Shown: in pieces, positions 7,847 through 13,660 of the stretch
Position numbering within the stretch: the first letter of the stretch is position 1
Layout: each line of letters opens with the position of its first letter
Notes under the pieces: generated by a model
What the model saw: only the letters and a program-made list of their open reading frames with translations
Databases searched by the model: none
What the model was told of the DNA's origin: nothing
Source of the DNA: a virus
Virus record (IMG/VR): IMGVR_UViG_3300036857_000308
Span: 1 to 27,741 of that record
Direction: 5' to 3' (one strand)
Length of the DNA stretch: 27,741 nucleotides
Position numbers and translations under genes: made by a program

Positions 7847-9387
7847 CAGGTGCCGGCCTCAAGTTCATTGAGGTTCACGGTAGCGCCGAGGACCGAGTCG
7901 AGGAGCTGTGTCACCTGGGCTTCGCTGATCGCGCCGAGTTGCACGCCGGTACCGAGGGCCTGCACCGCGTTGCCGAGGCTGGTGAGCAGTTCCACGCGGC
8001 GGGCGAGTTCGGCGTCGTCGTCCAACTTCGACATCCATCCGCGTACGAGTTCCGGGTCCCGGCCGGTCTCCACGAGCGCCTGCTCGCGGGGCACGCCGGC
8101 GTCGATTTTCGCGGTGACGGTGGCCCAGCCTTCGGCGTCGTCGATCTGCTGCGGCGGCTGCCAGCGCACCTGCACCGTGACGTCCTCGACACCGAGGAGG
8201 GCGAGGGCGTGCTCGAAGGCGTCCTCGGTGACCGGGCCGAATGCGCGTTGCAGGTGGTTGACGCGGGCGATGAGCGGCGCATTCGCCTCCCTGCGTGAGG
8301 CGCCGGACATCTGGTCGCCGGTGGAGTCGAACAGGTGGAACGGCGTGTCCGTCACCTGGCTCATGGCCTTGATGTACCGGTCCAGCGGCTCCATGTAGGT
8401 GGACGGGTTCGCGGCCTCGAACTGGCCGACCTGCTTGTAGCCCTGCAACTGCCAGAACTCGCCCGGATCCGAGCGCAGCTGGGAGGGGTTGCCCGGGTCC
8501 TCCGGATCCGCTGCGGTGTCCTCCGGGAAGTCCGGGTCGAAGTCGGCTTGCTGGCCGGGCTGGTCGACGGTGGGGTCGATGAGCCCGTACCGCTGGGGCA
8601 GGGACTGGTAGTCGATGACCGCTGCGTGGGACAGGACCAGCTTGTTGATCAGAGTTTGCGCACCGTAGGCGGCGTAGTGCTCGGGCCGTCCGTAGGGGCG
8701 GGCGGTGCGGTAGTGGTGGAACGGGAACCCATATGGGTGGGTGATGACCGGGGGCTGCCCGTCGCCGGTGTAGGGCTGCCACCTTTTCGTGCCGGTCTTG
8801 TTCTTCGTCAGGACGTAGCGTTCGATCCGCGACAGCGCCGCGCCCGTGTCGTCCACGGCGGGCGGGTAGTACAGGTCGGCGCGGACCGTCTCGGACTCGC
8901 CGTGTCCGACACACCACGACTTGATCGCCAACTGGACTTGGAGCGGGTGCTCGTCGTCGTAGATGACACGGACGGTGGTGGGGCTGTGCACGGTCATCCC
9001 GACGGACGTGATAGCGCCGTCGGGGTCGAGGTTGGGCCACACCATCAGGTAGGCGTCCCCGAGTGAGCAGGCTTTCTCCAGCAGGCCCGGCAGTTCCATG
9101 TCGAGCTGGTTGACGGTGATCAGGTCGGTGATCTCGTCGTCTGCGTGCTGGTCGCCGGTGGTGATGCTGGTGATGTGAAGGCGGTTCAGCACGGCGCGGA
9201 CGGGGATCCGGGCGAAGTTGAGCTCGTCGATCTCTTCCAGCTGGGACTTGGCGAGAAGCCGGGCCACGGCGTCGGAGGCGTAGATTTCGTCGACGTCGCC
9301 GTCGTAGTAGGACTGGGCTTTGGCGTAGGCGGGGCGGGCCTCGGTGAGGTCTTCGTATGACTGTGTGAGGTCGCTGTTGACAGCCAT
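7846..9387 (-). CDS. Portal protein (SPP1 gp6-like)
   Basis: The protein has 513 residues from ATG 9387, which has GGAGG five bases upstream; an ATG four codons earlier lies before that site. Characteristic portal segments are present: 'YYDGDVDEIYASD' near the start, 'ACSLGDAYLMVWPN', 'TAPYGRPE'-like 'TARPYGRPEHYAAYGAQTLI', 'TPFHLFDSTGDQMSGASRRE' and 'LIARVNHLQRAFG' (crown and stem helices). The dodecameric ring forms the packaging channel at one vertex and binds the large terminase. In most phages the gene directly follows the terminase, but here about 2 kb of other DNA separates them. Confidence 0.9.
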   Translation of the reverse strand: MAVNSDLTQSYEDLTEARPAYAKAQSYYDGDVDEIYASDAVARLLAKSQLEEIDELNFARIPVRAVLNRLHITSITTGDQHADDEITDLITVNQLDMELPGLLEKACSLGDAYLMVWPNLDPDGAITSVGMTVHSPTTVRVIYDDEHPLQVQLAIKSWCVGHGESETVRADLYYPPAVDDTGAALSRIERYVLTKNKTGTKRWQPYTGDGQPPVITHPYGFPFHHYRTARPYGRPEHYAAYGAQTLINKLVLSHAAVIDYQSLPQRYGLIDPTVDQPGQQADFDPDFPEDTAADPEDPGNPSQLRSDPGEFWQLQGYKQVGQFEAANPSTYMEPLDRYIKAMSQVTDTPFHLFDSTGDQMSGASRREANAPLIARVNHLQRAFGPVTEDAFEHALALLGVEDVTVQVRWQPPQQIDDAEGWATVTAKIDAGVPREQALVETGRDPELVRGWMSKLDDDAELARRVELLTSLGNAVQALGTGVQLGAISEAQVTQLLDSVLGATVNLNELEAGT

Positions 9388-9405
9388 CCGCACCTCCATC
9401 GAGAC

Positions 9406-9444
9406 CCTTTGAATCGAAGGCTACGGCATCTCTTTACCTTCGAA
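9406..9444. promoter_or_regulatory. 39-bp operator-like element, copy A
   Basis: The element starts CCTTTGAATCGAAGG and ends CTTTACCTTCGAA on the + strand. It aligns without gaps with 13622-13660, sharing 25 or more of 39 positions, including CCTTTGAATCG and TTCGA. It has outward dyad symmetry: TCGAAGG near one end and CCTTCGA near the other. It lies between the divergent portal and 9553 genes, 19 bases upstream of the portal start. It is probably a repressor or activator site, or a phage promoter; which protein binds is unknown. Confidence 0.55.
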
Positions 9445-9459
9445 CTAGGGCATCTGATG

Positions 9460-9489
9460 TTGTGTGCGCGGCCCTGTATCTCCTACACT
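9460..9489 (+). promoter_or_regulatory. Candidate sigma-70-type promoter for the rightward pair
   Basis: TTGTGT (9460-9465) and TACACT (9484-9489) are separated by 18 bases, a fair fit to actinomycete -35 and -10 boxes. They point at the gene at 9553, with an expected leader of about 55 bases. The leader contains a nine-codon frame (9512-9541, MAAGTHPFA) and the recurrent 10-mer at 9521-9530. Confidence 0.4.
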
Positions 9490-9552
9490 CGCAACACGGT
9501 TCGTGGCGCGGATGGCAGCAGGCACCCACCCATTCGCTTGAAAGGGACAGTC

Positions 9553-10188
9553 ATGTCCGAGGCAGCAATCGAGATCACCCGTGTCGGCACCGAGACCCTC
9601 CTCGTCCCGATCGTCGGCACCAGCCCGCTGATCGTGCACCGCTTCAGCGAGAAGGCCAAGAAGCAGATGCTCGACAACATGCAGGGCCGCAAGACCCCGA
9701 AGCAGGCGAAGAACCCGGAGGCCGAGTACGAGGCCGCGTTCTACCGGCTCAAGGACGGGAACTATGGCTTCCCGGCGCTCGCCTTCAAGGCCGCTACGGT
9801 CGGCGGCGCCCGCTTCTACTCGGGCGTGACGATGACCGCCCTGAAGCAGTTCCTGTTCATCCACGGTGAAGAGGGCGACGACGGTCGCGCGCTGACCCGC
9901 ATCGAGGGCGAGCCGATCATGCGGGAGGACGTCGTCACGGTCGGCCGCAACGGCTCGGACCTCAGGTACCGGCCGCAGTTCTCGGAGTGGCGCACCACGC
10001 TGGAAGTCCGGTACGTCACCTCGGCTCTGACGCAGGGCTCGGTGCTGTCTCTGATCGACGCGGGCGGCATGGGCGTCGGGGTCGGCGAGTGGCGGCCGGA
10101 GAAGGACGGCGACTTCGGCACCTACCGCGTCGACCCCACGCGCGAGGTGCAGATCATCAAGGACGGCGCTGAGCTGGTGGCGGCGTGA
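9553..10188 (+). CDS. Phage protein of unknown function, inserted between terminase and portal
   Basis: The protein has 211 residues, starting MSEAAIEITRVGTETLLVPI after AAAGGG. The segment 'VGTSPLIVHRFSEKAKKQML', then 'KNPEAEYEAAFYRLKDGNYG' and 'FPALAFKAATVGGARF', is a pattern I associate with a conserved phage family of no known role. The alternating beta pattern ('TTLEVRYVTSALTQGSVLSL') and a glycine-rich 'AGGMGVGVGEWRPEKDGDFG' near the end would suit a RAMP-like or annealing fold, but this is a guess. It runs opposite to the structural operon. GTGA overlap couples it to the next gene, so the two are probably a unit, transcribed early. Confidence 0.7.
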   Translation: MSEAAIEITRVGTETLLVPIVGTSPLIVHRFSEKAKKQMLDNMQGRKTPKQAKNPEAEYEAAFYRLKDGNYGFPALAFKAATVGGARFYSGVTMTALKQFLFIHGEEGDDGRALTRIEGEPIMREDVVTVGRNGSDLRYRPQFSEWRTTLEVRYVTSALTQGSVLSLIDAGGMGVGVGEWRPEKDGDFGTYRVDPTREVQIIKDGAELVAA

Positions 10189-10613
10189 GCGAGGCACTGA
10201 CCGCGCAGCTCACGGAGATCCGGGACGCCCACGGCGGTGAGCTGAAGCCGGAGTACGTGCTGGACGCTGCTCGCGATCCGAGTCATCCGCTGCACTCGCG
10301 GTTCGAGTGGGACGACTCCGTTGCCGCGGAGAAGTTCCGCCTGGAGCAGGCGCACACGCTGATCCAGAAGGCGAAGGTGGCGTACCAGGCGCCTGGGGAG
10401 GACGGGCCCCCGAGGTTGACGCGGGCGTTCGTCGCGATGCGGGCTGCTGAGGGTCATGTCTATGACCCGGTGGAAGAGGTTGCGCAAGATCCGCTGCGTC
10501 GGAAGATGGCGCTGGCCGATATGGAGCGTGAGTGGAAGGTGCTCCGTCGGCGGTGGGAGGAGTATGCGGAGTTCTTCGACATGATCCGCCGCGACACGGG
10601 CGAGGCGGCCTGA
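10185..10613 (+). CDS. Conserved-type phage protein of unknown function (142 aa)
   Basis: The protein starts at a GTG overlapping the previous stop. It reads MSEALTAQLTEIRDAHGGEL, then 'LDAARDPSHPLHSRFEWDDS' and 'AAEKFRLEQAHTLI', a string seen in unrelated phages and usually encoded next to the family of the previous gene. The second half is helical and charged (ADMEREWKVLRRRWEEYAEF). The pairing across phages points to a joint task, possibly in DNA metabolism; nothing in the sequence proves it. The gene is followed not by a terminator but by the 5-bp-periodic tract. Confidence 0.7.
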   Translation: MSEALTAQLTEIRDAHGGELKPEYVLDAARDPSHPLHSRFEWDDSVAAEKFRLEQAHTLIQKAKVAYQAPGEDGPPRLTRAFVAMRAAEGHVYDPVEEVAQDPLRRKMALADMEREWKVLRRRWEEYAEFFDMIRRDTGEAA

Positions 10614-11450
10614 CTCGGCAGGCATGGCTAGGTTCGGCATGGTTCGGCTGGGCAAGCGCAGCGTGGCAAGGCCAGGCAAGGCAGGCTCGGCACGGTCTGT
10701 CGTGGCAGGGTGTGTCTTGGCAAGTCCTGGCACGGTTCGGCAGGCGCGGTTTCGTAGGGCTCGGCGCGCTGTGTCTGGGCATGGTTTGGCAGGCACGGCT
10801 AGGTTCGTCGTGGCTCGGAGTGGCTAGGCCCGTTTCGGTCCGGCAGGCAAGGTAGGCGCGTTCTGTTGTGGCAAGGTCGGCACGGCGTGGCAGGCGAGGC
10901 TAGGTCCGGTTCGGCAGGTCATGGCTACGCGGGGTGCGGCAGGCGCGGAAGGGCGTGTCTGGGCACCGCCTGGTGCGGCACCGCATGGAACGGCTCGGCA
11001 GGCACGGCAGGTCTAGGTCCGGACCGGCTAGGCCCGTTCGGGCACGGTTCGGCATGGCAGGCGAGGCGCGGTCAGGTCAGTCGAGGAGCGGTGAGGCCAG
11101 GCATGGCAGCGCACGGCAGGCAGGGCAGGGCGCGGCATTGCATGGCGAGGCGCTGCGTGGAATCGCACGGCAGGCAGGGCCGGGCTTGGCGCGGCTGGGC
11201 CTGGCGCGGCGCTGTAGGGTCCGGTAGGGCAGGCGCGGCGTGGATAGGCGAGGCATCGCCAGGCACGGCAAGGCAGGCACGGCATGGCAGCGCCTGGAAT
11301 GGCGGGGCCTGTCGCGGTTCGGCATGGCAGGCATGGTTGGGCAGGGCCCGTTCGGGCGTCGCTCGGCACGGCACGGCAGGCACGGCCAGGTGCGGTGTGG
11401 CACGTCTTGGTGAGGCTCGGAAGGCGCGGCAAGGCAGGCACGGGGGCCGC
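10614..11450. repeat. 837-bp non-coding tract with a degenerate 5-bp repeat (GG[C/T]NN)
   Basis: GG dinucleotides recur every five bases: at 10621, 10626, 10631, 10636, 10641, 10646 and 10651, then after a phase change at 10665, 10670, 10675 and 10680, then at 10684, 10689, 10694, 10704, 10709, 10719, 10729, 10734 and 10739. Common units are GGCAN and GGTTC. The + strand is G-rich (26 G against 14 C in 10621-10680). Longer copies also occur, for example a 17-base identical repeat at 11110-11126 and 11164-11180. Open frames on both strands are by-products of low A+T and have repeating peptides such as PCLPCRA. The tract fills the space between the convergent 10185 gene and the large terminase. 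No terminator hairpin is evident within it. Confidence 0.85.
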
Positions 11451-13031
11451 TCACCGAGGTGTCACAGACCGCGCCGCAGCACGCTTCCGCGGCGGCGGCT
11501 TCAAGAACCGCAGCACCGCATTCCCCACACTGTCAATCAGATCATCGTTCGGAGCCTTCGGGAACCCGACCATCTCCTCCTCCAGCGCAGACAGCGGCTC
11601 CGCATGCACTACCCGCGTCGGGATCAACTGGTACAGGTTCAGCAGACGCTCAGCGCGCGCCTCCTTCTTCTCCCCGTTCGAGAAGATGACGACCTTCACC
11701 GGCAGGTCATGAAACACCTCGCGCCACAACTCCTGACCCTGGTTTCCCTCAACAAGGAGAGCGCCAACCTCGGGGAAGGACTCCAGGATCTGAAGGATCC
11801 GCGTCCGCAGCGGCTTGCCCTTCAGCTTGACCCGCTGCGCAAACTTCACCAGGCAGCGCGCCGGGCGGTCGCCACTGTCCGGCGCCCAGGAGACGACGGA
11901 CAGTCCGGTGAAGTCGGACGACTTCTTCGTGGTAACGGCGCCGTCCACCGACAGATACGTGCGAGCGGTCGGGAAGGTGCCGTAAGTGAAGTCGTCCTCT
12001 GACCAGTAGGCGCCGTCTGTGGCCATCGGGTCGTTGAGGTAGTTCTTCCGGTAGCTACGCGTGTGCTCGATCTTCTTCAGGTATCCGAGTGGCCACTTCG
12101 ACGGCCACATGGACCGCTCGCGCCCGTAGTCGTCACGGATGATCGGCAGGTGATGGTGGACGCGGAACTGCTGCTCCCCAACCCACGCGTTGCCCTCGGT
12201 CCGCTCACCCTTGCCCCACTTCACCAGCTGGTGCGTGACGCTGCCCGGCATCGTCACCGTCCCTGACAACACCACCCGGGCGTAGATGTTCAACGGCAGG
12301 ATCGCATCCGTCACCGTCTTCAGCCGCTTGTCCGCCTGGTATGCGGAGTACTGCGCCTCATCGGGCTCGATGTCGTCCAGCAGCAGCAGGTCCGGACGCA
12401 ACTGGCCGACCTTCATGCCGAGACTGGACGCGTCGATACCCTTCGCCGCGAACACGAACCCGTTGGACCGGATCACCATGTGCTTCGCGTCCGACTCCGA
12501 CGCCCCCGACGGCCGCCGGCCTGGCGTGCACAGCGTGGGGAAGTCCCGGCGTAGCGCTGCGTTCTCGTCGACTTCCTTCCGGAACGTCGCCAGGTGCATT
12601 TCTGCCTGCGGGCCGGAGTCGGCGAACACGGCGGCGAACTTCACGTGCCCGTGTGCGGCGGCCCACAGGGGGAGGATGAACAGCATCCATGTGGACTTGC
12701 CGGTATCGCGGGGGGCGAGGTCGGCGTCCCGCTGCTCCATCGGCGAGCGCGGAGGGATAGCCCACTGGCGGGCGCGGCGGATCCAGTCGAGGTGGGCGTC
12801 GGCGAAGGTGACGTTGCCTTCGGTGTCGCGGAGGTGGTGCAGGCAGTAGAGGACGGCGAACAGCAGTGGGTCGAGGCGGGTGGCTTCGATGCGGGCTTCG
12901 CGGTGTCGGGGGTCGCCGTCAAGGATCCGCGCGTCAAGGCCGTCGATCCACGCCGGGAAGTCGAACGTGGCCGCGTTCGCCTGTGCGTTGTATGGGTCGG
13001 CAATGCACGGGTCGCCGACCGCCGTGGTCAC
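11451..13031 (-). CDS. Terminase large subunit
   Basis: The protein has 526 residues from GTG 13031 (GTGA overlap with the small subunit; GGGAG 8 bases upstream). The ATPase half has a Walker A-like 'APRDTGKST' (106-114) and Walker B 'LLLLDD' (215-220). The nuclease half has the RNase H-type acidic set: 'SVDGAVTTKKSSDFTG' (D363), 'LLVEGNQGQELW' (E428) and 'NDDLIDSVGNAV' (D497 or D500). It would dock on the portal, pump DNA into the procapsid and cut concatemers. The C-terminus is very basic (PPPRKRAAARSVTPR). It is followed by the 5-bp-repeat tract rather than the portal gene. Confidence 0.9.
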   Translation of the reverse strand: MTTAVGDPCIADPYNAQANAATFDFPAWIDGLDARILDGDPRHREARIEATRLDPLLFAVLYCLHHLRDTEGNVTFADAHLDWIRRARQWAIPPRSPMEQRDADLAPRDTGKSTWMLFILPLWAAAHGHVKFAAVFADSGPQAEMHLATFRKEVDENAALRRDFPTLCTPGRRPSGASESDAKHMVIRSNGFVFAAKGIDASSLGMKVGQLRPDLLLLDDIEPDEAQYSAYQADKRLKTVTDAILPLNIYARVVLSGTVTMPGSVTHQLVKWGKGERTEGNAWVGEQQFRVHHHLPIIRDDYGRERSMWPSKWPLGYLKKIEHTRSYRKNYLNDPMATDGAYWSEDDFTYGTFPTARTYLSVDGAVTTKKSSDFTGLSVVSWAPDSGDRPARCLVKFAQRVKLKGKPLRTRILQILESFPEVGALLVEGNQGQELWREVFHDLPVKVVIFSNGEKKEARAERLLNLYQLIPTRVVHAEPLSALEEEMVGFPKAPNDDLIDSVGNAVLRFLKPPPRKRAAARSVTPR

Positions 13032-13597: not shown

Positions 13598-13621
13598 GGT
13601 GGGTGCCTCCTTAGCCCTGTA

Positions 13622-13660
13622 CCTTTGAATCGTAGGTCAAGGCACCCACTCATCTTCGAT
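13622..13660. promoter_or_regulatory. 39-bp operator-like element, copy B
   Basis: The element starts CCTTTGAATCGTAGG and ends CATCTTCGAT. It is the ungapped partner of 9406-9444. It sits in the divergent gap between small terminase and the basic-protein gene at 13685, 25 bases upstream of the terminase start, the same position relative to a leftward late gene as copy A. It contains a near-copy of the recurrent 10-mer (GGCACCCACT, 13641-13650). On the minus strand it holds TTGACC, a possible -35 box for the terminase. Confidence 0.55.

What the first reader, a model, noticed from the sequence alone, without database searches (positions are those of the whole stretch)
10614..11450. An 837-bp tract with a strict but degenerate 5-bp period inside the phage late region
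GG recurs every five bases for long runs (for example seven consecutive steps from 10621 to 10651), with occasional phase slips, while the three other positions drift. The + strand is G-rich. The tract sits between convergent genes, next to the large terminase and in place of the usual terminase-portal junction. A five-base unit gives GG on alternating helix faces. It could be a packaging (pac) or replication site, a G-rich RNA, or a spacer grown by slippage. Degeneracy with kept phase suggests selection on spacing rather than recent expansion.
Basis: partly seen in the sequence, partly recalled or inferred. Interest (0 to 1): 0.75.

Follow-up and report, generated by a model that had tools for sequence, protein, structure and literature searches.

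The report
VIPR guide-RNA array in an actinophage
The odd five-base rhythm is a string of guide-RNA genes of a recently described phage weapon (VIPR, a relative of CRISPR); decoding two of its guides gave exact matches to replication genes of rival phages and of an integrated phage-satellite-like element.

Summary
The tract parses into 170 modules using only 5-nt (149) and 4-nt (20) steps. It is not a pac site, replication site or slippage relic. It is the guide array of a VIPR system (preprint PMC13142463, 2026): a Vipr RAMP protein gene (9553-10188), a vap-like gene (10185-10613) and a GGY/NN vrRNA array (10617-11447), inserted between terminase and portal. Close terminase relatives lack it, but the gene pair and a 5-bp tract recur together in many unrelated phages. 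The window Vipr profile matches the solved SUSP1 Vipr (PDB 36pp, E 3e-12); its model has the Cas7/Csm3 fold (Z 11.8). Read by the published one-nucleotide-skip rule, unit 10942-11000 exactly matches 40 viral contigs, in a phage helicase gene where inspected, mostly with the skip at the codon wobble position (order-reversed control: 0). Unit 11001-11059 matches Prim-Pol genes of two integrated elements 22/22, one satellite-like. The other twelve units have no convincing target. In this clade guides are delimited by a GGCA tetramer. Known kind, new member, with two natural targets decoded.

The parts
9553..10188 (+). vipr gene: RAMP (Cas7/Csm3-like) protein, about 211 aa (longest ORF starts at TTG 9409; alignment favours ATG 9553); phrog_4652
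   Evidence: profile A1 hits PDB 36pp SUSP1 Vipr E 3.3e-12; AlphaFold model pLDDT 90.8, best PDB matches are Csm3-type subunits, VIA Z 11.8, 166 aligned
10185..10613 (+). vap-like accessory gene, 142 aa, 4-bp overlap with vipr; phrog_15946; weak winged-helix resemblance in its N-terminal part
   Evidence: co-occurs with vipr in nearly all loci; model pLDDT 95.0; PDB matches to winged-helix DNA-binding proteins only weak, Z 4.6 at best
10617..11447 (+). vrRNA guide array: 170 GGYNN modules, 4-nt GGCA delimiters, about 14 guide units of 6-11 NN
10684..10742 (+). guide unit, 11 NN (TC-AC-CT-GT-AG-GT-TT-AA-CT-AC-TC); target not found
10942..11000 (+). guide unit, 11 NN (GC-AG-GT-TG-AC-CT-GC-AC-AT-AC-TC); matches phage SF2 helicase motif DVIVASVQTLA, antisense
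   Evidence: 40 viral contigs with exact 20/20 match, 38 of them 22/22; helicase family
11001..11059 (+). guide unit, 11 NN (AC-AG-TA-CC-CC-TA-CC-CG-AC-TC-AT); matches Prim-Pol motif IDVRGYGGYLV, antisense
   Evidence: two 22/22 matches in integrated elements at tRNA-Thr
11060..11118 (+). guide unit, 11 NN; target not found
11119..11172 (+). guide unit, 10 NN; only two chance-like hits
11173..11231 (+). guide unit, 11 NN; no match in 121 genomes
11379..11422 (+). guide unit, 8 NN; weak candidate target (1 mismatch) in the terminase-portal gap of the relative L005
7846..9399 (-). portal protein gene, flank of the inserted cassette
11451..13031 (-). large terminase gene, flank of the inserted cassette

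Best explanation
The tract is the guide array of a phage-borne VIPR system. Shown here: the gene upstream (9553-10188) encodes a homologue of the SUSP1 Vipr RAMP protein; the tract has the vrRNA grammar (GGY framework, variable NN); the cassette of vipr, vap-like gene and array recurs in many unrelated phages; two guide units read by the one-nucleotide-skip rule (N1N2 x N3N4 x ...) find exact matches in replication genes of other phages and integrated elements, with the skipped base at the codon wobble position. Inferred from the preprint: the + strand is transcribed, Vipr subunits coat the RNA about one per pentamer holding GGY, the NN pairs bind complementary double-stranded DNA in rival elements, and binding blocks transcription. 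Also inferred: the GGCA tetramer marks the boundary between guides.
For: Periodicity and module parse. Homology to PDB 36pp SUSP1 Vipr, E 3.3e-12. RAMP fold. Gene pair and sense-strand 5-bp array co-occur in most of L003-L004 and L021-L138, in unrelated phages and bacterial contigs. Unit 10942: 40 viral contigs with exact 20/20 match and 38/40 agreement at the 11th NN, which was not in the pattern; order-reversed control pattern 0 hits. Unit 11001: full 22/22 in two of 199 genomes, both Prim-Pol (PF09250), next to integrases at tRNA-Thr; backwards control matched 1 genome even at 3 mismatches. Skip base equals codon third base in the genes examined.
Against: No RNA or binding data exist for this phage. 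About twelve of fourteen units have no convincing target in the searches made. No separate structured 3' tail, as described for SUSP1 vrRNAs, was recognised. Both matched motifs are conserved protein motifs, so the number of matching contigs reflects motif conservation, although the guide letters still have to equal it.
Confidence: 0.94

Rival explanations
1. The cassette is a VIPR relic: homologous genes and array, but no longer expressed or used.
For: No consensus promoter or terminator found around the array (the scan does not cover phage or most actinobacterial promoters); some modules have lost GG (GTC, CGC).
Against: Both genes are open and overlap by four bases; only 5- and 4-nt steps across 169 steps; two guides still match exactly.
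Confidence: 0.05
2. Pac or replication site, or a spacer grown by slippage.
For: Location beside the large terminase.
Against: Terminase relatives lack the tract, whereas the vipr/vap pair carries it at other loci, e.g. next to Rha and excisionase genes in F1 mycobacteriophages. Slippage does not predict exact gapped matches to foreign genes.
Confidence: 0.005
3. The tract encodes protein (it is annotated as hypothetical ORFs in some relatives, e.g. UmaThurman gp40).
For: Open frames exist in the tract and some relatives are annotated so.
Against: A 5-nt unit with 4-nt steps is out of register with codons; variability sits at NN irrespective of frame.
Confidence: 0.005

Closest known systems
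VIPR, Escherichia phage SUSP1 and Pseudomonas fulva prophage systems (PMC13142463)
   Same: Vipr RAMP protein, vap-type partner, GGY/NN vrRNA, one-nucleotide-skip code, wobble-aligned targets in competing phages and satellites
   Different: Here the array is one unbroken run of about 831 nt with GGCA delimiters and no recognised separate 3' tails; phage relatives are actinobacterial; Vipr shares only profile-level similarity with SUSP1
VIPR 'staggered arrays with overlapping vrRNAs' (same preprint, fig. S18, not readable here)
   Same: Possibly this architecture
   Different: Cannot be compared; supplement not available
Class 1 CRISPR-Cas Cas7/Csm3 backbone (Csm, type VII)
   Same: RAMP fold (Z up to 11.8)
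   Different: No CRISPR repeats or cas genes found beside it; 5-nt rather than 6-nt periodicity

Membership tests
VIPR | Vipr RAMP protein homologous to SUSP1 Vipr | tested here: met
   36pp_D E 3.3e-12, aligned 13-196 of the profile
VIPR | RAMP fold with G-loop | tested here: met
   Csm3 matches Z 11.8; glycine-rich G-V-G-E-W-R-P motif conserved in alignment A3
VIPR | vap accessory gene in the operon | tested here: inconclusive
   phrog_15946 gene nearly always nearby, weakly winged-helix-like; vap sequences of the preprint not available for comparison
VIPR | vrRNA region of GGY/NN pentamers, 9-16 repeats per guide | tested here: met
   170 modules; most units hold 8-11 five-base modules plus one GGCA
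VIPR | One-nucleotide-skip targets with skip at wobble base | tested here: met
   two units, 20-22 of 22 letters
VIPR | Invariable structured 3' tail on each vrRNA (SUSP1 clade) | tested here: inconclusive
   no tail recognised inside the continuous array by inspection; other VIPR types are said to differ in array architecture
VIPR | vrRNA expression and Vipr binding | not testable with these tools
   needs RNA
CRISPR-Cas class 1 | CRISPR repeat-spacer array with cas genes | tested here: not met
   no long identical repeats; flanks are terminase and portal

The most novel reading that the evidence does not exclude
A continuous VIPR array uses a 4-nt GGCA tetramer as a genetic punctuation mark: guides are packed head to tail with no separate tail, each guide being exactly the NN letters between two tetramers, and one array carries guides against both ordinary phages (helicase) and satellite-like elements (Prim-Pol).
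Probability: 0.4. Interest if true: 0.7.

Novelty: new member of a known kind. Interest (0 to 1): 0.6.

Why it matters
VIPR was described in a 2026 preprint whose experiments rest on two proteobacterial systems. This is a sequence-only, independent test of its non-contiguous code in a distant actinophage clade: it gives exact natural targets, supports the one-nucleotide skip with the wobble alignment, supports the phage-versus-satellite role, and suggests how continuous arrays are divided into guides.

Tried and rejected
Exact scans of viral contigs for units 11060 (10 NN) and 11001 (9 NN) gave none; unit 11119 (9 NN) gave two unrelated contigs, taken as chance; unit 11173 gave none in 121 genomes. 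Scanning all units against whole genomes of the closest terminase relatives gave nothing better than shuffled guides except unit 11379 (1 mismatch; the best of 30 shuffles also reaches 1), which hits an operator-like element ACCTWCGATTCRAAGGT in the relatives' terminase-portal gap; too short to claim. An all-against-all search of 543 units in loci in hand gave only a slight excess for skip 1 (of units with 18 or more letters, 4 with at most one mismatch, against 0, 0, 2 for skips 0, 2, 3 and 0 for shuffled guides). Rfam: no match in 8500-12000. Pfam: no family for the window Vipr. One Pfam call failed on coordinates and was repeated in part. Most of the 135 genomes matched by unit 11001 at up to 3 mismatches carry the related motif GIDIRG-x-GGYLVGPGS of other Prim-Pol-like genes (the 1-mismatch copy in L219 lies among metabolic genes), so only the two 0-mismatch sites are used as targets.

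Full report
Observation. The 5-bp rhythm is real: GG lag-5 count 95 against 32±5 in 1000 dinucleotide shuffles, with harmonics at 10, 15 and 20, and the tract outranks the rest of the contig. A dynamic-programming parse gives 170 modules from 10617 to 11447, with 149 steps of five, 20 of four and no other. The framework is G-G-pyrimidine; the last two bases vary. The 'phase slips' are mostly the tetramer GGCA followed by GGC, which cuts the array into units mostly of 44, 49, 54 and 59 nt. In 80 arrays of relatives the same holds: 5857 five-base and 832 four-base steps, 581 of the latter GGCA, with unit lengths peaking at 49, 54, 44 and 59 apart from short pieces.

Context. The tract fills the space between a two-gene + strand operon (9409-10188 and 10185-10613) and the convergent large terminase; operon and tract together sit between terminase and portal. 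Terminase relatives, the twelve closest with 69-85% identity, lack the tract, and the 13 of their virus records searched whole have no vipr gene (some records are fragments). In contrast, homologues of the two operon genes in unrelated phages, including F1 mycobacteriophages, Gordonia phages and Cyanophage Cy-LDV1, nearly all have a sense-strand 5-bp array beside them. The tract therefore belongs to the gene pair, not to packaging.

Identity. A literature search found the preprint that describes VIPR (PMC13142463): a RAMP protein, a vap partner and vrRNAs of alternating GGY/NN, read with a one-nucleotide skip. The window protein's profile matches one solved chain convincingly, 36pp 'SUSP1 Vipr protein', E 3.3e-12. 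Its AlphaFold model (pLDDT 90.8) best matches Csm3-type Cas7 subunits (Z 11.8, 4.0 A over 166 residues). The partner protein models well (pLDDT 95.0) and resembles winged-helix DNA binders only weakly (Z 4.6).

Targets. The units were fixed by the parse before any target search with them. Unit 10942, written with one free base between dinucleotides, matched 40 viral contigs exactly over 20 letters. 38 of the 40 also match the eleventh dinucleotide, which was left out of the pattern. In the seven full-match contigs whose reading frame was followed, the site encodes DVIVASVQTLA on the opposite strand with the free base at the codon third position. The two of these genes scanned are DNA helicases (phrog_16; Pfam ResIII, DEAD and Helicase_C). 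The free base varies among contigs. The same dinucleotides in reversed order gave no match in the collection, and unit 11060 none. The two contigs that lack the eleventh match encode PVMVASVQTLA instead. Unit 11001 reads, in antisense, as IDVRGYGGYLV. In 199 genomes of the genus of G241 two matches are perfect over 22 letters; the backwards control pattern matched one genome even at three mismatches. Both are Prim-Pol genes (PF09250) with 'GIDVRGYGGYLVGPGS', wobble-aligned. In both an integrase gene lies near, beside a tRNA-Thr. In L217 the element also carries a repressor, an excisionase, a small terminase and a capsid gene within about 8 kb, the make-up of a capsid-forming phage satellite (inference from known families). 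The helicase match ends at the delimiters: the base after the guide is usually G, not the A of GGCA.

How it likely works. By homology and the preprint's experiments, Vipr coats each RNA, about one subunit per pentamer, holding GGY and presenting NN to double-stranded DNA, and represses the targeted gene. For this phage, expression, processing and repression are inferred, not shown. The genus of G241 and the host of this phage were not named by the tools; the nearest terminase relatives among named phages are Streptomyces phages, which suggests a Streptomyces-like host.

Limits. About twelve units have no convincing target. The VIPR type could not be assigned because the supplement was not readable. 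The GGCA delimiter may already be in its figure S18.

Noticed in passing
window 9405-9420 (-) and 13621-13636 (-); relatives L005, L010, L184, L194: A repeated operator- or promoter-like element CCTWCGATTCRAAGGT in intergenic gaps of this phage and its terminase relatives (2 copies in the window, 0.05 expected).
   Followed up: partly
L120:4653-4976 (UmaThurman gp40); L004:2950-3336 (Donkeykong gp48): vrRNA arrays in published phage records are annotated as hypothetical proteins, probably spurious ORFs.
   Followed up: partly
L217:6892-15217: Integrated satellite-like element at tRNA-Thr with integrase, repressor, excisionase, Prim-Pol, small terminase and HK97-type capsid in an actinobacterial genome.
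   Followed up: partly
L048:7290-7520; L054:8417-11359: Very long or locally homogenised VIPR arrays (near-identical 14-nt repeats GGCACGGCTAGGCA in L048; an array of about 3 kb in L054), suggesting recent local expansion.
   Followed up: no
L095:3899 vs L102:7273: A guide unit of one VIPR locus matches a coding site in another VIPR-bearing locus 18/18 under the one-nucleotide skip.
   Followed up: partly
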